Assembly (NCBI GenBank): GCA_013289985.1
Contig: JABCYW010000001.1
Location: 267,772-331,771 of the forward strand
DNA from: Betaproteobacteria bacterium
GTDB lineage: Bacteria > Pseudomonadota > Gammaproteobacteria > Burkholderiales > Burkholderiaceae_C
Length of the DNA stretch: 64,000 nt
Direction: 5' to 3'
Positions within the stretch are counted from its first letter, which is position 1. Every line of letters begins with the position of its first letter. Below, piece by piece: positions 1 through 10,473 of this stretch. The notes under the pieces were generated by a model. It was not told the origin of the DNA and made no database searches. It was given only the letters and a program-made list of their open reading frames with translations. The translations under genes were made by a program, and so were the position numbers.

Positions 1-493
1 ACGCGTTGGCGAGGGTCAGCATGTCGTCCTCGTCCAAGTCGTGATCGAGACGTTGAATGGCTTGCGTCAACAAAGGAGCCGGCATAAGGACAGCCGAAGC
101 AAACAAGTTCGCTTCACGCTCTTGTGTCGGTGTCGTCGTCGAATCTTGGCTTGTGTACTCCGGCCCAGATGGCACACCAACGCGCTTGTACAACTGCATC
201 TGCTTGTCGATGAACAGACCGTCTCCCTGCACGTGGTGAAGCACCAAGTGTCCGCACTCATGCGCTGCGGTGAAGCGCTTGCGGTTGGAATGGTGGTTCT
301 TGTTTATCAGGATGTGTTTGGCGCCGCCCTGGATGGCCAACACGCCTGAAACGTGATCCTCGAATTGTTGTTCGTGGAGCGACGCGCCGAGGGAGGCTAC
401 GACCTTGACGATGTCGACCGGCGCAGTGATCGCACCAGCATTCCAGAGCACTTGCTGCGCTCGTTGCTCGATGTCGCTACGACTAAGAGTCAT
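1..493 (-). CDS. ImmA/IrrE family metallopeptidase, 3' end cut by window
   Basis: A zinc metallopeptidase of the ImmA/IrrE family, which typically cleaves a partner repressor. The visible 164 residues contain the HExxH-type motif HECGH at residues 78-82, followed by a family-typical block EREANLFASAVLMP whose Glu would be the third zinc ligand. The ATG at 491-493 overlaps the end of the upstream XRE gene by 11 bases, so the two are co-translated. ImmA/ImmR pairs control mobile elements such as ICEBs1. Here the pair may regulate the transposon or act as a toxin-antitoxin-like module. The C-terminus lies outside the window. Confidence 0.9.
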   Translation of the reverse strand, partial: MTLSRSDIEQRAQQVLWNAGAITAPVDIVKVVASLGASLHEQQFEDHVSGVLAIQGGAKHILINKNHHSNRKRFTAAHECGHLVLHHVQGDGLFIDKQMQLYKRVGVPSGPEYTSQDSTTTPTQEREANLFASAVLMPAPLLTQAIQRLDHDLDEDDMLTLANA

Positions 494-848
494 AGCTGAC
501 CGAGCCTGCAAAGATGCCTGCAAGAGCTTGTGCCACCAACGGTGTAGCCGACGCCTTTTGCGAACCAAAAGTCAACGGAGCTTCCGCAGCTGTGTCGACG
601 GACACGTCCTTGATCGAAGGAAGGATGTCGCTCACATTCACGTTGAGCTGTTCGCAGATTCGGAACAGAACATGAACGGGAATCTTTTGATTCCCGTTCT
701 CAATGTTTGTGATGGATGTGCGCTCCAGACCGACAAGATCAGCCAACTCACCTTGCGTCAAACGTCCTCGCTTGCCGCCAGCTTGGCCTTCTCTCAGCTG
801 CTTGAGACGCACTCCTAGCGTCTCATACAGGCACTTGTCGTCAATCAT
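483..848 (-). CDS. XRE/Cro-CI family transcriptional regulator
   Basis: A 121-residue DNA-binding protein with one N-terminal helix-turn-helix: LTQGELADLVGLERTS, then TNIENGNQKIPVHVL, is a standard XRE fold. The C-terminal tail is low-complexity and Ala-rich. An upstream in-frame ATG exists at 881, but the ATG at 848 is preferred because a GGGGA ribosome-binding site lies about five bases before it. The gene is followed, with an 11-base overlap, by the ImmA-type peptidase, so it is the probable repressor substrate and autoregulator of the pair. The intergenic region to the right would carry its operator, but I could not identify one. Confidence 0.85.
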   Translation of the reverse strand: MIDDKCLYETLGVRLKQLREGQAGGKRGRLTQGELADLVGLERTSITNIENGNQKIPVHVLFRICEQLNVNVSDILPSIKDVSVDTAAEAPLTFGSQKASATPLVAQALAGIFAGSVSYDS

Positions 849-1252
849 TTTTTCCCCGTTCCGTTGAGCCTTAGCGCTCACGCGCTAATGCTAGTTGTGC
901 TCCCGCAGTAAAAATCAAGGGTAAACCCTTGTTTTTGATTTGAATTGTGCGTTTCATTCACTGGATGTGTTGGCGAAAGTGGCTTTTTCAACCAGCATCA
1001 TGTGGCGCGCCGTCCCGAAAGGCGTTACGATGGCACCGACGGACTCGACAGGAGGTGGAATGACCAGCAAGAAATGAAAAAGGGCAAGCTCGAGAGCTTG
1101 CCCCTGGTGACTCCGGCCAAAGACCGAACTCGATGTGGAAGTTGAGAGTGTCTTAGGCCTGGGTCCAGGCGTCAAGTTCTCCCGAGCGATTCCTCTATTT
1201 CGCATGTGCTTCAAGGCACAGGCGCGGATGAACTCACCAGTGAGAAATTCAC
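849..1252. other. Intergenic region between the repressor pair and the Ubl operon
   Basis: Divergent spacer of about 400 bases. The repressor pair is presumably transcribed leftward from here and the Ubl operon rightward. It holds a short inverted repeat, AAGGGTAAACCCTT, at 918-931 that could be an operator, and a minus-strand terminator at 1076-1103. A 36-codon open frame runs from GTG at 967 to TGA at 1075-1077; its last five codons follow an AGGAGGT ribosome-binding site. Neither this frame nor any other here resembles a known protein. A gene encoding a small RNA on the minus strand is possible. Confidence 0.5.
1076..1103 (-). terminator. Rho-independent terminator reading leftward
   Basis: GGGCAAGCT and AGCTTGCCC form a perfect 9-bp stem around a CGAG loop at 1082-1103. 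On the minus strand the hairpin is followed by TTTTT, the layout of an intrinsic terminator. On the plus strand no T-run follows. The transcript it would end starts between about 1110 and 1250, where no convincing minus-strand gene is seen. Confidence 0.6.
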
Positions 1253-1957
1253 TTGAATACTGAAACCCACGATTTGCACCCGGAAGGTGCTCAGGCCGGT
1301 CGCGCTTTCGCGACCAAGATCTACAACGAACACGCGGACGAACGCGACGTCCGCTTCCACGAACAGGCCATCACCGGCCGTCAGCTGATGCAGGCCCTTG
1401 GCATCCACGACGCCGAGGCCAACGCCATCATCAAGCAGGTCTCTTCAGGCGAAACCGCGGAGATTCGCCTGGATGAAGCGATCGACCTGGCGCTGGCGGA
1501 GAACCGGCGCCTGTGGGTCATGACCAGCGACAGCATGCAGCGCTTCGTCCTGGACGGCGGCCAGATGGAGTGGCCGCGTCCGGTGATCGACGAGAAGGTG
1601 CTGGTCATGCTGTCGCGCGTGCGCGGCGAGGTCGAAGTGATCCAGGAACTGCCCGGCGGCGGCGAGCGGGTCATCTCCAGCGGCGAGCGCGTGAACCTCG
1701 CGGGCGCCGGCGTGGAGCACTTCAAGGTGCGCCACCTGTCCAAGGACGTGACGGTCATCTACAACGAGCACGAGAAGTCCATCCCGCGCGGCGTGTACAC
1801 CACCGAGCAGCTCAAGACGGTCTTCCAGGTCGAGGCGGGCTACGTGCTGGACATCGTGCGCGGCGTGGAGTTCGTCGAGCTCACGCCCGGCGAGCAGATC
1901 CGCGTGCACAACGGCCAGAAGTTCTTCTCCCACGCCCCCTGCGGCCAGTCGTCATGA
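1253..1957 (+). CDS. Multi-ubiquitin-domain protein (three beta-grasp repeats)
   Basis: A 234-residue ubiquitin-like modifier. Three successive segments share beta-grasp character: about residues 20-95 (ending NRRLWVM), 98-165 (QRFVLDGGQMEWPRP onward) and 166-234 (VTVIYNEHEKSIPRG onward), matching the multiubiquitin family found with bacterial E1/E2/JAB genes. The C-terminus is FSHAPCGQSS, not a di-glycine tail, so conjugation chemistry or prior trimming is uncertain. The start is a TTG: no ATG lies between the in-frame stop at 1241 and this point. The stop overlaps the next gene as ATGA. It would act as the substrate protein attached to targets by the downstream enzymes. Confidence 0.85.
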   Translation: MNTETHDLHPEGAQAGRAFATKIYNEHADERDVRFHEQAITGRQLMQALGIHDAEANAIIKQVSSGETAEIRLDEAIDLALAENRRLWVMTSDSMQRFVLDGGQMEWPRPVIDEKVLVMLSRVRGEVEVIQELPGGGERVISSGERVNLAGAGVEHFKVRHLSKDVTVIYNEHEKSIPRGVYTTEQLKTVFQVEAGYVLDIVRGVEFVELTPGEQIRVHNGQKFFSHAPCGQSS

Positions 1958-2289
1958 CCAGCGCGGCCGAACAACTGCACAAGCTGCAGATCCTGTACCC
2001 GGCCGCCCACGCCGGCTCCGATGGCGGCGTGAACTTCGCCTACATCCCGGAGCTGGGCGTGGGCAAGGCGGGCCACAAGCAGGTCGTGCGCGCGCTGCTC
2101 TACCCCAGCAACGATGGCGGCTACTCGAGCCGCCTGTTCCTCGATCGCCAGGTGCCCACCACGGCGAACTACACCTGGACGACGCGGGTGATCGCCGGCG
2201 AGACCTGGTGGGTGGTCTCGTTCAACGGCGTGCCCGGAACGCTGCCCTGGACTGAGATCCTGGCCAACCACGTGAGGGCGCTGCAATGA
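1954..2289 (+). CDS. E2-like (prokaryotic E2 family) protein lacking cysteine
   Basis: A 111-residue protein that starts at an ATG inside the Ubl stop (ATGA) and stops inside the JAB start (TGA overlapping ATGA). By position and by its beta-sheet-rich pattern (VVRALLYPSNDGG, then TTRVIAGETWWVVSFNGVPG, then a helix EILANHVRAL) it fits the small E2-like proteins of such operons. It has no cysteine at all, so a normal E2 thioester is impossible. It is either a non-catalytic adaptor or uses Ser/Thr. It belongs in the cytoplasm with the Ubl and E1. The family assignment rests on weak sequence similarity plus strong context. Confidence 0.7.
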   Translation: MTSAAEQLHKLQILYPAAHAGSDGGVNFAYIPELGVGKAGHKQVVRALLYPSNDGGYSSRLFLDRQVPTTANYTWTTRVIAGETWWVVSFNGVPGTLPWTEILANHVRALQ

Positions 2290-2795
2290 AATTCACTTTC
2301 AAGGCAACGCCTGCGCTGTTCGCCCGCGCGCGTCAGGACCTCGCCCGCAAGCATCCGTTCGCCCACGAGCGCGTCGGCTTCGTCATCGCGGGCTGCGCCC
2401 GCGCGGACGACGGCCTGATCGTGATCACGGCGCGCGACTACATGCCGGTCGAGGACGAGGACTACATCCGCAACCCGAACGTGGGCGCGATGATCGGCTC
2501 GGGCGCAATGCGCAAGGGCCTGCAGCGTGCCTATGCGACGCGCTCGGCGCTGTTCCACATCCACACCCATGGCGGCCGTGGCACGCCCGAGTTCAGCAGC
2601 GTCGACATCAAGGACGCGCAGAACTTCGTGCCGAGCTTCTTCAACGTCGTCCCCGCCATGCCCCACGGCCTGATCGTTCTCAGCAACGATTCGGCCCGGG
2701 GCCGGGTGTGGGTCGCGCCGAAGAAAAAGCCCGTCTACGTCCACCGCTTCGTCGCGGTGGGCTCGCCGCTGGTCCGCTACGGAGAAGTCGCATGA
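2286..2795 (+). CDS. JAB/MPN (JAMM) metallopeptidase, deconjugase
   Basis: A 169-residue JAMM-type peptidase expected to remove the Ubl from targets or to trim its C-terminus. The motif is visible: E28 in HERVGFVIAG, H93-T-H95 in FHIHTHGG, then S104 and D107 in FSSVDIKD. The spacing from H95 to S104 is one residue longer than the common HxHx7SxxD form, as in several bacterial JAB proteins. It overlaps both neighbours by ATGA junctions, so the four proteins are made from one message. The pairing with E1 and Ubl supports deubiquitinase-like action rather than CysO-type sulphur chemistry. Confidence 0.88.
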   Translation: MKFTFKATPALFARARQDLARKHPFAHERVGFVIAGCARADDGLIVITARDYMPVEDEDYIRNPNVGAMIGSGAMRKGLQRAYATRSALFHIHTHGGRGTPEFSSVDIKDAQNFVPSFFNVVPAMPHGLIVLSNDSARGRVWVAPKKKPVYVHRFVAVGSPLVRYGEVA

Positions 2796-3721
2796 GCAGA
2801 CTCGATCGACAAAGCTTTCTGGGCGCCGACAGCGACCGCATCCTGCACGATCTGACGGTGGGCTACGTCGGCCTGGGCGGTGGCGGCTCGCACGTCGCGC
2901 AACAGGCTGCGCACCTGGGCGTCGGCGGCCACGTCCTGGTCGATGGCGACATCGTCGAGGACACCAACCTGAACCGCCTGGTCAACGGCACGGCCAAGGA
3001 CGCCAAAGACAAGCGCCTGAAGGTCGACGTCGCCGCCCGGACGATCAAGGCGGTGAACCCGTCGGCTCGCGTCAAGAAGTGTCCTGTGCCCTGGCAGCAG
3101 GCGCTCGAGGAACTCAAGGGCTGCGACGTCATCATCGGTGGGCTGGATTCGGTGGTGGCCAAGGACGATCTCGATCGCTTCTGCCGGCGCCACCTGATCC
3201 CGTACATCGACATGGGCATGGATGTGCACGACACCGGCGGCCAGTACCTGATCGCCGGCCAGGTCGTGCTCTCGTCGCCGGGCTGCCCCTGTCTGCGCTG
3301 CTTCGGGGTCGTGACCGAAGACGGCTTGGCGCAGGAGGCCAAGCGCTACGGCGCCGCGGGCTCGCGTCCGCAGGTCGTCTGGCCCAACGGCGTCCTGGCC
3401 TCGCTGGCGATCGGGCTGCTGACGCAGTTGGTCACGCCCTGGCACCGCGGCAATGTTTCGTCGGCCTACCTCGAGTACGACGGCAACAAGAACACCGTTC
3501 GCTGCAGTCCGCGCGTGGCCATGCTGGGTGACCGGCCTTGCCCGCACATGTCGGAGCTGGAGACGGGCGACGCCCGCTTCGACATCCGAGAGGATCCGAA
3601 ACGAAAGCCGTCCTCCCCGGTCGCGGCCGACGAGGCGACTGACGGCGCAGCCGCACAGAGCGCAACTCGCCGGCTCCTGCGCAAGCTCGGGATCCGGCTG
3701 CGCCCCGCGTCAGAGACCTAA
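2792..3721 (+). CDS. E1/ThiF-family Ubl-activating enzyme
   Basis: A 309-residue E1-like adenylating enzyme. Residues 27-34 (GLGGGGSH) form the nucleotide-binding glycine loop, followed by VLVDGDIVEDTNLNR at 48-62, the ThiF/MoeB/UBA1 signature with Arg62 for ATP. A zinc site is likely built from C165/C167/C170 (CPCLRC) and C238/C250/H252. It would adenylate the Ubl C-terminus and pass it on. The ATG overlaps the JAB stop. A longer in-frame start at 2708 lies inside the JAB gene and is less likely. The basic tail after about residue 265 is low-complexity. It is the last gene of the operon; a hairpin follows at 3729-3760. Confidence 0.92.
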   Translation: MSRLDRQSFLGADSDRILHDLTVGYVGLGGGGSHVAQQAAHLGVGGHVLVDGDIVEDTNLNRLVNGTAKDAKDKRLKVDVAARTIKAVNPSARVKKCPVPWQQALEELKGCDVIIGGLDSVVAKDDLDRFCRRHLIPYIDMGMDVHDTGGQYLIAGQVVLSSPGCPCLRCFGVVTEDGLAQEAKRYGAAGSRPQVVWPNGVLASLAIGLLTQLVTPWHRGNVSSAYLEYDGNKNTVRCSPRVAMLGDRPCPHMSELETGDARFDIREDPKRKPSSPVAADEATDGAAAQSATRRLLRKLGIRLRPASET

Positions 3722-5250: not shown

Positions 5251-7734
5251 ATGTTCAACTTCAAGAACCTGACCTCGGCAACCAAGTCCGAGGCACCGGC
5301 CACGCTCAAGGGCCTGTTCGACCAGCTCGATCGACGTACAAGCCACAGCACGCTGCGCCTGGTGCAACTCTCGGCCTTCCAGGCTCTCGATGCGCAAAGG
5401 GATGAGCGCGACATCGTCTTGAAGCTCAGCACGGGCTCGGGCAAGACGGTGATCGGTTTGGTGTACGCTGAAATGATGCGCCGCCGCTACCCTGGCGAGC
5501 CCTCGATCTTCCTGTGTCCGACCAACCAGCTGGTCGACCAGGTCGTGGAGAGCGGCAAGGAAATCGGTGTGAAGGTTGCGACGTTCAAGGACGGTACGCC
5601 CCATGACGCGTTTGCCGGGGATGCCGTTCTCGCGTGCACCTATGACCGGGTCTTCAACGCACGGTCGGCCTTCGAGAACCGTGGCATCCGGCCGTCTTGC
5701 TTCGTGCTGGATGACGTCCACGCCGGCGTCGACCGAATTCGCGGTTGCTACACGTTGACCGTCCCCGACGCCGCCAAGACCGCCATCACGGCGATCCTGC
5801 AGCCCTTGTGCGAACAAACCGATCCGGCGGCGTGGAGCGCCATTACCAACAACAAGCAGGACACGCCCTACGAAGTGCCGTACTGGATCTGGGCGAACGT
5901 CTACAAGCAGGCTTTTGCCATCCTCGATGGCATGCAGAGCGAGGATGAGAAAGACCTGTTCTTCCGCTGGGGCAACATCTCGCGCTACATCGAGCTGGCC
6001 CGGGTATGCGTCACTGCAAGCCAAGTGGAGATCGCGTTGCCACTGGCCGCCGTCGAGGAGAACTCGGCGTTCTCGATGGCCAAGCACCGACTCTTCATGT
6101 CGGCCAGCATTAAGGACGGATCGACCCTCATCGGCGACCTGGGCTGCGACGTGAACGCGCTGCTGCGAATCATCGATCCCCCCGAAGACGAAGGCGCTGG
6201 CGAGCGCATGATCCTTCCGACCTCGCTGATCTCCGACAACGCGAAGAAGTCCGAGGTCGCGGAGCTGTGCGCCAGCTTGGCACAGAGCACCAACGTGGTG
6301 GTCTTGACCAGCGCCGGCGCTCAGGGCGTCGAATGGCAGAAGGCTGGGGCGACCTATTGCGAGGGCAAGGAGGTCGACGTGGCGATCGCTGGTCTGAGGA
6401 CGTCGTCACCGAACTATTACGTCTTCTCGCAGCGGTTCGACGGCGTGGATCTTCCGGACGATGCCTGCCGCGTCCTGGTGATCGACGGCATTCCCACGGG
6501 CGACCGGCTCTGCGACAAGGTCGATGCGGCCCGGCAGAAAGATTCTCCGGAGCAAGACGTGCGAACGGTCAACAGGTTCGAGCAGGCGCTCGGGCGCGCC
6601 GTGCGCTCGCATGCGGACTACGCAGCGGTGTTGCTCGTCGGCCAGGACATCGCATCGTTCATCGGCAAGAAGACCGTGCTGAACCTCTTCGAGGGCCGCA
6701 CGCGCGTGCAAGTCGAAATGGGGCGTGAACTGACCAAGATGGCGGTCGGGCAGCCGCTGCCGGCGGTGCTCGCAGCAGCAGTGCGGGCGCTCCTGATCCG
6801 CGACGAAGAATGGAAGGTGGCTCACCGAAACGGCGTCAAGACGGCAACCCGCTACGTCCGCCCAGTCGCCACGCTCACCGTGTTCGAGCAAGTCATGCAG
6901 GCGCAGCGCGCCGCCTGGTTGGCGGCAAAGGGCCGGAACTTCCAGCAGGCGGTCTCGCTGCTCAGCGGTGCGACCAACATCGAAGGCTTGCATCCGATCC
7001 AGAAGGCCGAGCTGCACAACCGAATCGCGGTCTACATGTACCACTTCGATCCGGCTCAAGCTGCTCTGGTCTATCGGTCGGCGTTCGAGGCCAACTCCGC
7101 CTTCCCGCGTCCGGAGCAGACCGTGGACAAGAAGTTCGCGCGCGCGACCGATCAGGCCGTTGCCGTGGCAAGTTACTTTGGCAAGTTCATTTCTGCGAAC
7201 GCGGCGCTCGCGCGCCTCGATCAGATCAAGGCCTTGCTGAGCTTTGGCATGCCCGCCGACAAGGTGGAGCAGGGTCTCAAGGAGCTCGGCGAAGCGCTCG
7301 GCCTGACCTCATCGCGGCCCGAGAAGGAAACGGGTCGAGGGCCGGACGTGTTCTGGCTGGGAACTGAACTGGCGCTCTGCCTGGAGGCCAAGAGCGAGAA
7401 GATCGCACCGATCAGCAAGTCTGATGCGGCGCAACTGATCCTGAGCCTCGAATGGTGTCGTGAGCATGTGCCCAACGAGGAGGTGACCGTGGTTCCGGTC
7501 TTCGTGACCAACACGTCGGCCGTCGATCGGCCGGAAGATATTTCCTTCGGCCCGGCGCTGCTGACCGAGGGGGCCATCCTCGAGATGGTGGATCAGCTGC
7601 GTGGGCTGGTCAACGGACTCGCCTACGAGGGGCCGCTGTTTGGCGATCCGCCGATGGTCGGCCGTGGCTTGCAGAGCCGAAACCTGTCTGGCAAGCAGTT
7701 GCTGCAGCGCGTCAAGGCCTTTCCGAAGTCGTGA
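5251..7734 (+). CDS. SF2 DEAD/DEAH-type helicase with C-terminal PD-(D/E)xK nuclease
   Basis: An 827-residue protein. Helicase motifs are clear: Walker A STGSGKT at 60-66, motif Ia FLCPTNQLVDQ, Walker B DDVH at 154-157, and motif VI QALGRAVR at 445-452. A helical middle region of about 200 residues follows. Near the C-terminus, PD at 698-699 and E712-A-K714 form a PD-(D/E)xK active-site pattern on predicted strands, with a hydrophobic strand EVTVVPVFVT after it. It should translocate on nucleic acid and cut it. A GGAG site precedes the ATG. The partner is the membrane protein upstream. I cannot match the pair to a named defence system; Hachiman also uses an SF2 helicase but with a DUF1837 partner. 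Confidence 0.88.
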   Translation: MFNFKNLTSATKSEAPATLKGLFDQLDRRTSHSTLRLVQLSAFQALDAQRDERDIVLKLSTGSGKTVIGLVYAEMMRRRYPGEPSIFLCPTNQLVDQVVESGKEIGVKVATFKDGTPHDAFAGDAVLACTYDRVFNARSAFENRGIRPSCFVLDDVHAGVDRIRGCYTLTVPDAAKTAITAILQPLCEQTDPAAWSAITNNKQDTPYEVPYWIWANVYKQAFAILDGMQSEDEKDLFFRWGNISRYIELARVCVTASQVEIALPLAAVEENSAFSMAKHRLFMSASIKDGSTLIGDLGCDVNALLRIIDPPEDEGAGERMILPTSLISDNAKKSEVAELCASLAQSTNVVVLTSAGAQGVEWQKAGATYCEGKEVDVAIAGLRTSSPNYYVFSQRFDGVDLPDDACRVLVIDGIPTGDRLCDKVDAARQKDSPEQDVRTVNRFEQALGRAVRSHADYAAVLLVGQDIASFIGKKTVLNLFEGRTRVQVEMGRELTKMAVGQPLPAVLAAAVRALLIRDEEWKVAHRNGVKTATRYVRPVATLTVFEQVMQAQRAAWLAAKGRNFQQAVSLLSGATNIEGLHPIQKAELHNRIAVYMYHFDPAQAALVYRSAFEANSAFPRPEQTVDKKFARATDQAVAVASYFGKFISANAALARLDQIKALLSFGMPADKVEQGLKELGEALGLTSSRPEKETGRGPDVFWLGTELALCLEAKSEKIAPISKSDAAQLILSLEWCREHVPNEEVTVVPVFVTNTSAVDRPEDISFGPALLTEGAILEMVDQLRGLVNGLAYEGPLFGDPPMVGRGLQSRNLSGKQLLQRVKAFPKS

Positions 7735-8380: not shown

Positions 8381-8688
8381 ATTGGCATCCTCTTCCTAAG
8401 AGAGACCGCAAAGTCGTCGAAGCGCTGTGAAAGATCAACCTTGGCTATGAAATGACGCGCGGGGCCCGTAGAGCTTAGCGTTCGGACGCCTCGTCGAATC
8501 TGGCTAGACAGCAACCGACCGCCTGATGCGCGCTTGGGCGTATTGGAAAACACGATCTCGCGTCCATTCCAATGACAGTAAACACGCTGTCCGAGCTTGA
8601 AAGTGGCAGGCTTCGGAGGAAGCACGATGCGGCCGCCGCTTCGGATGATGCCGACGTACGCCTGCTTGGCGTTGCGAGACGATTTCAT
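8377..8688 (-). CDS. Small AbrB/SpoVT-like basic protein (103 aa)
   Basis: The ATG at 8688 has a strong GGGGAGGT site just upstream and overlaps the TniQ stop as ATGA. The core VGIIRSGGRIVLPPKPATF followed by KLGQRVYCHW resembles the swapped-hairpin AbrB/SpoVT DNA-binding fold, which often forms the antitoxin of toxin-antitoxin pairs. The C-terminal half is basic (SSQIRRGVRTLSS). It is in one operon with two tniQ genes and the 70-residue protein after it. Fold assignment is tentative; a role in regulating the tni operon or neutralising the downstream protein would fit. Confidence 0.6.
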   Translation of the reverse strand: MKSSRNAKQAYVGIIRSGGRIVLPPKPATFKLGQRVYCHWNGREIVFSNTPKRASGGRLLSSQIRRGVRTLSSTGPARHFIAKVDLSQRFDDFAVSLRKRMPI

Positions 8689-9557
8689 GTGACCTCCCCG
8701 GTTGTATGGGCACGAGCGTCTGTCGCCTTCTCGGGCCGAGGGCGAGAAGACAACGGTGTGGCAGGGCCCGCCAGCCAATTCCCCACCATCCAGAATGGCT
8801 GCGATGATGACGAGAGGTGTCCGCCCACGGATGACGCGATGTCTCTGTGTTTCTTAACGGTAAGAAGCCGCTCGCGTCCTGCTGCGACGTAGCTCGGGTC
8901 TGCTCCTGGCCCTTTGACTGCCTCTGGGCCCTTGATGCCCCAGTGTCTCAGCCAGTAAGGCAGACCGTTAAGAAACTGAGCATCGACGAAGACGGGATCC
9001 GCACGATGGAGAGGCTGGCAACACATCAGACACCAACTGAAGTCCTCAATGCCCTGCTTGCCCTTGCCTGGCTCCATCATGTCTCGTGCGAGTTCAACGT
9101 ACTTGCCGCAGTGAGGGCACCAATCCTCTAGTAGGCACCTGTGCCAAGGACAGAAGACAAGCTGCTCTATTCTGCAGTACAGGTGGAAGCACGGCGTCTG
9201 GTCGTCTCGCAGGCACAAGGAACAAAATCGATATCGCCCCCGGCGTCCTTGGGCGCCTCGCAACCGATACCCGCGCTGATTCTTCCCACCAAAGAACATG
9301 CGACCGCTCTCAAGCGCCTTGACTTCCTGGACGTACGGCGATTCTTTTGCAAACGCGTAGTAGTAGAGGTAGTCAAAGTCGTGGCCGAAGTCGAAGCCGA
9401 GGTAGCTCGCGAACTCCTTGTGGCTGCAGCCCTGCATCGCCGCCGCTCGCATGATCCAGGAATTGGGAGCCTCATGCGGCAGTGCGTGCGGAACGCTTGT
9501 CAGCGCGCGCAGCCTCACCGCGAAGTTCTGCCTAACGAAAGAGATCCCGCTGGTCAT
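8685..9557 (-). CDS. TniQ family protein 1
   Basis: A 290-residue TniQ-family target-selection protein. The N-terminal part (ISFVRQNFAVRLRALTSVP) is followed by a zinc-binding core with the Cys/His pairs CSLC, CPWH, CPHC and CLMC between about residues 112 and 185. TniQ/TnsD proteins bind the target DNA or a guide complex and recruit the TnsC filament. A longer start at 9599 is possible; the ATG at 9557 is chosen because it cuts the overlap with the preceding tniQ to 26 bases. At under 300 residues it is short for a TnsD. No Cas genes are nearby, so target choice is probably protein-guided. Confidence 0.82.
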   Translation of the reverse strand: MTSGISFVRQNFAVRLRALTSVPHALPHEAPNSWIMRAAAMQGCSHKEFASYLGFDFGHDFDYLYYYAFAKESPYVQEVKALESGRMFFGGKNQRGYRLRGAQGRRGRYRFCSLCLRDDQTPCFHLYCRIEQLVFCPWHRCLLEDWCPHCGKYVELARDMMEPGKGKQGIEDFSWCLMCCQPLHRADPVFVDAQFLNGLPYWLRHWGIKGPEAVKGPGADPSYVAAGRERLLTVKKHRDIASSVGGHLSSSSQPFWMVGNWLAGPATPLSSRPRPEKATDARAHTTGEVT

Positions 9558-10473
9558 GGTAGATGGGTTGTCTATTGCGCCACCTCGGCGCCTGGCCAAT
9601 GGCCTCCAGGAGGTGGCCGGCTGCGGCCCGATCGAAGGGTGAGATCCCTCGAAGCTTCTGCTCCGCCAAGCTGTCCGCGCAGCGCTGCAGCTCTGTCCGG
9701 CCCGCCCTGGCTAAATTGACGCTAACTGCCATCCGGCTCAGTGCTGAAGCGAGGATGTCATGCAGGTCGGCGCTACGCAGCCAGGTTGCTACGCCGTTCA
9801 TCACTTGGCCCTTCAAGGTCGCCTTCCCGCCGCCGAACGCCAACAGCACCCGGTAACCGCCGTCCAGCGACATGCCGCGCAGTGGCTCCATCGCAATGAG
9901 GCCGTCTCCTTCGATGACGTCGCGTCGCGAGGCGAGTGCGCCTGCTATCAGGGCCGACCACCTCACAACTGCGGCATCGGCCGGCTTGTTCTCGGTCGCG
10001 AGGTACCGACCGCAACTGCACACATCAAGGGCTGGGCGGTCCGGCGAGATCCCGCGGCCGCACTCTCCGCAGTGATCAAGCAGCACGATCTGGTGGTGGT
10101 GGCACGCCGTGTACGCGGCCAGATCCCATTCCATGCGCGCATAGCCGTGTTCTGCCAGGCAGTCCAGGCAAACCTGTTGGTGCGTGCCCCTCAGCGTCCA
10201 GTCGTCTCGCCAGGCCTGCCCGAACAGACGAACCTCTTGCCAGCGATCCTTACCCGAAACGCTGGGAAGTCGATGCTCGAACCAAGACTGCGGCACGCCA
10301 GTGAGCTGAGCAAAGGCGTTCGAGGCGTCGGATTGAATGTGGCGACGGCTGTGGCCATACGTATATTCGAGCGCCTCTCGCATTGAGCTGCAGTTGAGCG
10401 CCAAGGCGCGGATGAGGAAGCCGACGGCTCCCTCATCCGCTGCCGGCCTGCACTCTACGATGAGCGCGCTCAT
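9532..10473 (-). CDS. TniQ family protein 2
   Basis: A 313-residue TniQ-family protein, first of two in tandem. It has the typical block CLDCLAEHGYARMEWDLAAY, then CHHHQIVLLDHCGECG and a final CSCG, giving the zinc ligands. The ATG directly follows the tnsC stop (TGA then ATG), so translation is coupled. The C-terminal third is helical and ends in a basic segment. Having two different TniQ proteins may allow two target pathways, as TnsD and TnsE or TniQ do in other Tn7-like elements, or a heteromeric target complex. Confidence 0.82.
   Translation of the reverse strand: MSALIVECRPAADEGAVGFLIRALALNCSSMREALEYTYGHSRRHIQSDASNAFAQLTGVPQSWFEHRLPSVSGKDRWQEVRLFGQAWRDDWTLRGTHQQVCLDCLAEHGYARMEWDLAAYTACHHHQIVLLDHCGECGRGISPDRPALDVCSCGRYLATENKPADAAVVRWSALIAGALASRRDVIEGDGLIAMEPLRGMSLDGGYRVLLAFGGGKATLKGQVMNGVATWLRSADLHDILASALSRMAVSVNLARAGRTELQRCADSLAEQKLRGISPFDRAAAGHLLEAIGQAPRWRNRQPIYHDQRDLFR

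What the first reader, a model, noticed from the sequence alone, without database searches (positions are those of the whole stretch)
1253..3721. Ubl conjugation operon with a cysteine-free E2-like protein and a Ubl without a di-glycine tail
Seen: four ATGA-overlapped genes, Ubl (three beta-grasp repeats), E2-like, JAB (JAMM E28/H93/H95/D107) and E1 (GLGGGGSH, zinc Cys set). The 111-residue E2-like protein contains no Cys, and the Ubl ends APCGQSS. Established: bacterial Ubl/E2/JAB/E1 operons were described by Iyer, Burroughs and Aravind; the Bil and CBASS Cap2/Cap3 branches act against phage, and a further multi-Ubl branch has been called Bub. Inference: transfer here cannot use an E2 thioester, so it would use a Ser/Thr ester, direct E1 transfer, or prior JAB trimming of the Ubl.
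Basis: partly seen in the sequence, partly recalled or inferred. Interest (0 to 1): 0.85.

Follow-up and report, generated by a model that had tools for sequence, protein, structure and literature searches.

The report
Cysteine-free bacterial ubiquitin-like conjugation operon
Four overlapping bacterial genes encode a ubiquitin-like protein, its likely trimming enzyme, its activating enzyme and an E2-shaped partner in which the cysteines that normally carry ubiquitin are missing; this looks like a new split-gene variant of a recently characterised bacterial pathway called Bub, not a new kind of system.

Summary
In detail: Ubl 1253-1957, E2-like 1954-2289 (111 aa, no Cys), JAB 2286-2795 and E1 2792-3721, with ATGA overlaps. 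The Cys-less E2 is not peculiar to this locus: Iyer et al. 2006 already described inactive, Cys-less E2/RWD-like proteins in polyUbl operons. Among the PDB chains compared by VIA-align, the predicted E2-like and JAB folds match Citrobacter BubB and BubC best; the E1 profile's best PDB match is BubCD. The E1 also lacks a crossover-loop Cys: an invariant Tyr (Y186; 15 of 15 aligned E1s) stands there, equivalent to Citrobacter Y370, mutated in PDB 9eav. The Ubl ends in a conserved Gly plus three residues (Gly at -4 in 13 of 13), as if trimmed by the JAB like BubA(155-229). A divergent CapH/CapP-like pair flanks the operon. New here: a separate E1 clade with four split genes in Bil-like order but Bub-like, Cys-free enzymes, and an E2-like family unknown to Pfam, whose link to BubB rests on fold and position, not sequence. 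Likely role: JAB trimming, adenylation and Cys-free transfer, perhaps after DNA damage. Conjugation, substrates and phage defence are untested here; the Bub mechanism papers could not be read.

The parts
1253..1957 (+). Ubl (BubA-like), 234 aa, three beta-grasp repeats, TTG start
   Evidence: Pfam Multi_ubiq 7.8e-22, three stretches; PDB: alone best to BilA structure 8u38 6.6e-16, as a family profile best to 9d59 3.8e-38
1943..1945 (+). codon of Gly231, predicted last residue of the mature Ubl after JAB trimming (QSS removed)
   Evidence: Gly at -4 in 13 of 13 Ubls; Gly229 of C. freundii BubAB (L051) is the end of the PDB construct BubA 155-229; cleavage itself is inference
1954..2289 (+). E2-like protein (BubB-like fold), 111 aa, no Cys
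   Evidence: AlphaFold pLDDT 83.9; VIA-align best 9eae_C BubB Z 10.3, rmsd 2.9, 106 aligned; no Pfam match at E <= 1 in 13 of 13
2218..2220 (+). codon of Ser89, the only Ser/Thr/Cys invariant in 13 E2-like proteins
   Evidence: role inferred
2286..2795 (+). JAB/JAMM peptidase (BubC-like), 169 aa
   Evidence: E28, H93, H95, S104, D107 invariant in 11 of 11; VIA-align five BubCD entries Z 14.2-15.4, next best Z 10.3, from a model of mean pLDDT 62.7
2792..3721 (+). E1 adenylating enzyme (BubD-like), 309 aa, CxxC + CxH probable zinc site, no crossover-loop Cys
   Evidence: Pfam ThiF 6.9e-28; PDB profile best Citrobacter BubCD 1.5e-19; alignments
3347..3349 (+). codon of Tyr186, crossover-loop Tyr equivalent to Citrobacter BubCD Y370
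   Evidence: Tyr in 15 of 15 aligned E1s; 9eav carries Y370F; one control, the host's MoeB/ThiF-like protein L062, has Ala there with a Cys one residue earlier
483..881 (-). divergent HTH repressor-like gene (CapH-like)
   Evidence: PADLOC capH 3.4e-6, though Control_protein 7.8e-9 and HTH_VI 5.6e-8 score higher
1..568 (-). ImmA/IrrE (M78) metallopeptidase gene (CapP-like), continues about 80 bases upstream of the window
   Evidence: PADLOC capP 5.6e-31, Pfam Peptidase_M78 3.6e-21 on the full 215 aa from L061
867..936 (.). two imperfect inverted repeats (867-892, 911-936) in the divergent promoter region, candidate operators
   Evidence: function inferred; a scan for perfect 8-bp arms in relatives showed no shared element

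Best explanation
This is a split-gene variant of the Bub (polyUbl, 'row 6e') type of bacterial ubiquitin-like conjugation. The JAB removes the last three residues of the triple-beta-grasp Ubl and exposes Gly231. The E1 adenylates that Gly. The activated Ubl is then passed on without any Cys thioester, at a crossover loop centred on invariant Tyr186, with the BubB-like E2 docked on the E1. The E2-like protein most likely positions the activated Ubl non-covalently (about 0.45); an ester on Ser89 and/or Tyr186 is the main alternative (about 0.3). The JAB may also remove the Ubl from targets. A CapH/CapP-like pair probably holds the operon silent until DNA damage. Shown by computation: gene content, predicted folds, conserved residues, absence of a conserved E2 Cys and of a crossover-loop Cys. 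Inferred: every reaction step, the docking, the regulation and any anti-phage or stress role.
For: E1 and JAB match Bub structures best; the E2-like fold matches BubB with Z 10.3, against 8.1 for the next chain. The clade's E1 profile scores eight Bub-type proteins at 52-112 bits but only 3.7 for the Bil-like E1 of L054 ('Bil-like' is my label). JAMM residues are invariant. The Gly position equals the BubA(155-229) end. The E1 crossover Tyr is shared with Bub E1s and 9eav confirms Y370F there. No Cys of the E2-like family is invariant. CapH/CapP-like pair; PMC13373217 (passages) reports 219 of 544 Bub operons beside CapW or CapH+CapP. The four-gene order is kept in 11 loci, the window included.
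Against: Sequence does not link the E2-like family to Prok-E2_E/BubB: no Pfam hit in 13 of 13, hhalign probability 1.5%, best hmmsearch score 10.6 bits, to L048. Foldseek gave no match at E <= 0.001; BubB ranked second at E 0.62 behind an unrelated cyclase. The window Ubl alone matches the BilA structure best (8u38 6.6e-16; 9d59 only 2.8e-9), so the Ubl does not separate Bub from Bil. The E1 profile scores tRNA threonylcarbamoyladenosine dehydratase nearly as high as BubCD (5.3e-18 against 1.5e-19). Genes are split where Citrobacter fuses them, and the next two genes do not match DUF6527. The JAB model has mean pLDDT 62.7, and residues 96-114, which hold part of the active site, are below 50. 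The Bub mechanism papers could not be read.
Confidence: 0.72

Rival explanations
1. Refinement A of the best explanation: an oxygen-ester relay, in which the Ubl moves from adenylate to E1 Tyr186 and/or E2-like Ser89 as an ester, and then to the target.
For: Tyr186 is invariant at the crossover loop where the host's MoeB/ThiF-like protein has a Cys one residue away; Ser89 is the only invariant Ser/Thr/Cys of the E2-like family; 5 of 6 BubB homologues carry W-S-R-H in the corresponding region and the sixth F-S-W-H.
Against: The register between Ser89 and the BubB Ser is not fixed: MAFFT pairs BubB W-S-R-H with W75 and the following residues instead. Invariance may be structural. No chemistry was tested.
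Confidence: 0.3
2. Refinement B of the best explanation: the E2-like protein is a UEV/RWD-like Ubl-binding scaffold, and the E1 adenylate is the direct donor.
For: The best non-Bub fold matches are Tsg101 UEV domains (Z 7.3-8.1), inactive E2 variants (recalled). Iyer et al. proposed that the Cys-less domains probably bind the Ub moieties.
Against: BubB is in a solved complex with E1 and Ubl by its title, and strict conservation of Y57, R60, W75, W85, S89 and H106 suggests more than a bare scaffold.
Confidence: 0.45
3. Not protein conjugation but adenylation chemistry, such as sulfur transfer or RNA/small-molecule activation as in ThiF, MoeB or TcdA.
For: TcdA and, further off, MoeB match the E1 profile (5.3e-18 and 4.6e-14 against 1.5e-19 for BubCD).
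Against: A JAB, a triple Ubl and an E2-like gene travel with the E1 in 11 loci; the ThiF cut-off is far from met (65.2 of 275.25 bits).
Confidence: 0.08
4. Ordinary Cys thioester relay through an E1 Cys outside the crossover loop (C111 or C131) or a non-conserved Cys.
For: C111 is invariant in 11 of 11 and C131 is Cys in 9 of 11 E1s.
Against: C111 opens the strand before D119, is Ala in the Citrobacter BubD sequences, and lies 75 residues from Tyr186 in sequence; its place in the fold was not modelled. The window E2-like protein has no Cys to accept a thioester.
Confidence: 0.05

Closest known systems
Bub operons (Citrobacter BubAB-BubCD; PDB 9ea4, 9ea5, 9ea8, 9eae, 9eav)
   Same: polyUbl, Cys-less E2 fold, JAB, E1 with crossover Tyr, single Gly before the trimmed part, association with DNA-damage regulators
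   Different: four separate genes here against BubA-B and BubC-D fusions; E2-like not detectable as Prok-E2_E; E1 in a separate clade with a CxxC/CxH site that Citrobacter BubD lacks; no DUF6527 in the next two genes
Iyer et al. 2006 operon type 6e (polyUbl with inactive E2/RWD-like domain)
   Same: polyUbl, standalone Cys-less E2-like gene beside it, JAB and E1
   Different: JAB and E1 are separate genes here; no metal-binding partner found in the next two genes
Bil (BilABCD)
   Same: four separate genes in the order Ubl, E2, JAB, E1; the window Ubl alone matches the BilA structure 8u38 best
   Different: no E2 catalytic Cys (BilB Cys138, CEHH motif) and no second adenylation or Cys domain in the E1 (features from PMC11354881, passages)
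CapH/CapP regulators
   Same: divergent HTH and ImmA/IrrE pair beside an immune-type operon, with PADLOC matches
   Different: damage response not tested; CapH match weak

Membership tests
Bub / polyUbl 6e | multi-ubiquitin Ubl | tested here: met
   Multi_ubiq 77.7 bits against cut-off 24.5
Bub / polyUbl 6e | E2/RWD-like fold without catalytic Cys | tested here: met
   fold Z 10.3 to BubB; no invariant Cys in 13
Bub / polyUbl 6e | E2 belongs to Prok-E2_E by sequence, as C. freundii BubB does (5.1e-33) | tested here: not met
   0 of 13 match Pfam at E <= 1; hhalign probability 1.5%
Bub / polyUbl 6e | JAB/JAMM peptidase | tested here: met
   motif 11 of 11; Z 14.2-15.4 to five BubCD entries
Bub / polyUbl 6e | JAB fused to the N-terminus of the E1 (in most cases, Iyer et al.) | tested here: not met
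   separate genes in the window and the 10 other loci aligned; the Spirosoma relative appears fused but is broken
Bub / polyUbl 6e | metal-binding partner (DUF6527 in Citrobacter) | tested here: not met
   the next two genes do not match it. It is annotated in 5 of the 6 comparator regions fetched (L051, L052, L053, L055, L056, not L054) and not in L017, so it is not universal
Bub / polyUbl 6e | E1 crossover-loop Tyr in place of Cys (my criterion, from the 9eav mutation) | tested here: met
   Tyr in 15 of 15 aligned E1s
Bil | E2 catalytic Cys | tested here: not met
   window protein has 0 Cys
Bil | E1 with inactive and active adenylation domains and a Cys domain | tested here: not met
   309 aa with a single ThiF match
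CapH+CapP regulators | HTH plus ImmA/IrrE pair beside an immune-type operon | tested here: met
   capP 5.6e-31, capH 3.4e-6
CapH+CapP regulators | ssDNA-activated cleavage of CapH | not testable with these tools
   needs a reporter and protein assay
ThiF sulfur-carrier E1 | meets the curated NCBIfam cut-off | tested here: not met
   TIGR02356 65.2 bits against 275.25

The most novel reading that the evidence does not exclude
A distinct clade of ubiquitin-like conjugation systems that works entirely without Cys: the trimmed Ubl passes from adenylate to E1 Tyr186 and/or E2-like Ser89 as an oxygen ester, using an E2-like family that sequence libraries do not recognise.
Probability: 0.25. Interest if true: 0.65.

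Novelty: new variant of a known kind. Interest (0 to 1): 0.42.

Why it matters
If the pathway conjugates without any Cys, ubiquitin-like transfer does not require the thioester relay that is taught as its core. This clade is compact, with four separate small proteins, and so is convenient for reconstitution; it combines the gene layout of Bil with the Cys-free enzymes of Bub, which bears on how the two relate. The invariant Tyr186, Ser89 and Gly231 give direct mutational tests.

Tried and rejected
Sequence libraries for the E2-like protein: nothing in Pfam, NCBIfam, PADLOC or PHROGs for the window protein, nothing in Pfam at E <= 1 for 13 homologues, nothing convincing in the PDB by sequence (best E 0.24) or profile (best E 0.71). 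The JAB profile found no PDB sequence at E <= 1; 2 of 11 members matched Prok-JAB, best 0.0033, and 3 matched DUF7519, best 0.009; the fold comparison then gave BubC. One scan of viral contigs gave no relative of the Ubl.

Rejected: a Bil system (no E2 Cys, short E1); a sulfur-carrier pathway as the main reading; the idea that the tail GQSS comes from the gene overlap. A shared operator was sought in the region upstream of the Ubl of the window and 14 other loci by a scan for perfect 8-bp arms; none common to the window and its relatives was seen. A fixed equivalence between S89 and the Ser of BubB W-S-R-H was left open because the alignment register is ambiguous.

Literature searches for Bub or for this variant. 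Papers: passages only of PMC1779556, PMC11354881, PMC13373217 and PMC12687455. The Bub papers of Gong et al. 2025 and Ye et al. 2026 are cited there but not held; I saw only their references, so I cannot say whether this split-gene clade or its Tyr is discussed in them. The two papers that mention Bub differ on function: PMC12687455 says such systems appear to act mainly against phages, PMC13373217 says Bub has not been demonstrated to protect.

Rows dropped: of 10 plasmid records I fetched 8; H2 and H4 look like near-copies of H3 in the listing. L011 (unannotated record) is in the E2 alignment only; L016 (Spirosoma) is in the E2 and Ubl alignments but not in those of JAB and E1. Of 143 records I fetched 6. 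Of the host's three other ThiF-family matches only L062 served as a control; the script found no suitable frame in L063, and L065 was weak and not used. The tree has no outgroup, is drawn at the midpoint and warns of long branches (Roseovarius and neighbours). The motif scan for ImmA/IrrE missed two annotated cases (L012, L015), so it is a lower bound.

Full report
What is there. The window holds four ATGA-overlapped plus-strand genes: a triple beta-grasp Ubl (1253-1957), a 111-aa E2-like protein with no Cys (1954-2289), a JAB peptidase (2286-2795) and a 309-aa E1 (2792-3721). Pfam finds Multi_ubiq (7.8e-22, three stretches) and ThiF (6.9e-28), and nothing for the E2-like or JAB protein.

Is the missing Cys more than chance? 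In a single 111-aa protein it is not: about one in three such proteins would lack Cys at an assumed 1% frequency. I therefore collected homologues: four from species genomes and eight fetched of ten plasmid records. Across 13 E2-like proteins no Cys column is invariant; the commonest has Cys in 7 of 13 and is Tyr50 in the window protein. Invariant residues are G25, L49, P51, Y57, R60, L61, W75, W85, S89, L103 and H106. The lack of a conserved catalytic Cys is thus a family trait. It was also described in 2006: Iyer, Burroughs and Aravind (PMC1779556; passages) list operon type 6e with a polyUbl, a Cys-less E2/RWD-like domain that is occasionally a standalone gene, and an E1 that in most cases carries a fused JAB.

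What the proteins are. AlphaFold gave the E2-like protein an H-EEEE-EE-H fold with mean pLDDT 83.9 and pTM 0.78 from five sequences. Among the 999 chains compared, VIA-align ranks Citrobacter BubB first (9eae_C, Z 10.3, rmsd 2.9, 106 aligned), then Tsg101 UEV domains (8.1), which are inactive E2 variants (recalled), Atg3 (7.5) and other E2s (7.1 and below). Foldseek alone was weak: BubB came second with probability 0.94 but E 0.62, behind an unrelated cyclase, and no match reached 0.001. Sequence does not show the link: Pfam 0 of 13, hhalign probability 1.5% against a six-sequence BubB alignment, whereas C. freundii BubB matches Prok-E2_E at 5.1e-33. The JAB model is poorer (mean pLDDT 62.7), but its five best matches are all BubCD entries (Z 14.2-15.4), clear of the next at 10.3. 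The E1 profile matches BubCD best (1.5e-19) with TcdA close behind (5.3e-18). The Ubl is ambiguous: alone it matches the BilA structure 8u38 best (6.6e-16); as a family profile it matches 9d59 best (3.8e-38), then 9d5b, 8u38 and 9cd2. The printed stretch of 9d59 is the same as that of Citrobacter BubA(155-229), so I take 9d59 as BubA. The clade's E1 profile gives the eight Bub-type proteins 52-112 bits and the E1 of a Bil-like four-gene locus (L054, my label) 3.7 bits.

The E1 lacks the usual Cys too. In the crossover loop, where E1-like enzymes carry their Cys (recalled), all 15 aligned E1s (7 of this clade, 8 of Bub type) have Tyr, Y186 here; in the clade alignment it is Tyr in 11 of 11. As a single control, the host genome's MoeB/ThiF-like protein L062 has Ala in that column with a Cys one residue earlier. 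The Citrobacter equivalent is Y370, and the 9eav chain reads F there, as its title BubCD(D104A/Y370F)-BubB-BubA(155-229) says. The depositors therefore thought this Tyr worth mutating; why, I could not read. The invariant Cys of the E1 are C111, C167, C170 and C250; the last three with H252 look like a zinc site.

The Ubl tail. Gly stands at position -4 in 13 of 13 Ubls of the clade, followed by x-S-S or x-S-A. In C. freundii BubAB (L051) a single Gly at residue 229 precedes the E2 domain, and the PDB construct BubA 155-229 ends at that number. The simple reading is that the JAB removes QSS to leave Gly231. That cleavage is inferred.

How this locus differs from Bub. In an unrooted tree of 20 E1s the 12 sequences of this clade (including Spirosoma) separate from the 8 Bub-type E1s with 100/100 support; the program warns of long branches on the Bub side. 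The four genes are separate, in the Bil order, whereas Citrobacter fuses BubA-BubB and BubC-BubD. The next two genes do not match DUF6527. The clade is rare in what was sampled: besides the window's own genome, one weak match (8.2e-4) among the 149 relatives searched and none in the rest of 398 phylum genomes; Multi_ubiq proteins of any kind occur in 10 of 299. I therefore call it a Bub-like variant and do not file it as a Citrobacter-type Bub.

Regulation and setting. Divergent from the operon lie an HTH gene (PADLOC capH 3.4e-6, with two other HTH models scoring higher) and an ImmA/IrrE gene (capP 5.6e-31). An annotated HTH and ImmA/IrrE pair stands beside 4 of the other 12 loci (L009, L010, L012, L015); L016 has a DUF955 gene with an unnamed neighbour; L013 and L014 have other genes there; none was seen by a motif scan in L003-L006 and L011 (a lower bound). 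The comparators L053 and L054 also have the pair. PMC13373217 (passages) reports that 219 of 544 Bub operons lie beside CapW or CapH+CapP, that such regulators respond to DNA damage, and that Bub has not been demonstrated to protect against phage. The locus sits in a stretch of lower G+C (about 0.58-0.67 in 2-kb bins) from roughly 14 kb upstream to 22 kb into the window, against about 0.66-0.73 beyond; the bin with most of the operon is the highest of it (0.674). A PDC-S28 candidate defence helicase lies at 5251-7734 (1.6e-218).

Mechanism. I favour JAB trimming, adenylation by the E1, and Cys-free transfer organised around E1 Tyr186 with the E2-like protein docked as BubB is. Whether the E2-like protein only positions the Ubl (about 0.45) or an ester on Ser89 or Tyr186 carries it (about 0.3) is open. 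No step of the chemistry was tested here.

Novelty and interest. The surprising element, a Cys-less E2, is class-wide and in print. The additions are a separate split-gene clade, an E2-like family unknown to Pfam, the conserved Gly-x-Ser-Ser tail and the E1 Tyr that ties it to Bub.

Noticed in passing
window 5251-7734 +: Helicase matching PADLOC candidate defence family PDC-S28 (1.6e-218), the second gene downstream of the E1.
   Followed up: no
L061:3322-4086 + (4.7 to 3.9 kb upstream of the window): A second ImmA/IrrE protein with a strong capP match (1.5e-55), followed by a gene matching PDC-S31 (2.5e-14) and, below cut-off, DUF2971.
   Followed up: no
window 1082-1103: Inverted repeat with perfect 10-bp arms whose minus-strand reading is followed by a T run, like a terminator, between the HTH gene and the Ubl.
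   Followed up: no
L016 and L018 (Spirosoma linguale plasmid pSLIN02): The JAB gene of the same clade lies in two separated pieces, one beside a Tn3 transposase; the second piece runs on into the E1, as if JAB and E1 were fused there.
   Followed up: partly
   Followed up: no
L017:3486-3902 and L049 (E2-like at 3372 of its reverse complement): A further E2-like subtype beside fused JAB-E1 genes, with a shared S-R-R-Q-R-N-x-x-C-W motif and no Pfam match for the L017 protein.
   Followed up: no
L004:4159-4182, L006:4168-4191, L013:4168-4191: Palindrome GGACTTGATTTGCAAATCAAGTCC or a one-base variant upstream of the Ubl gene.
   Followed up: no
window 8688-9599 -: TniQ-family transposition protein inside the low-G+C stretch.
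   Followed up: no
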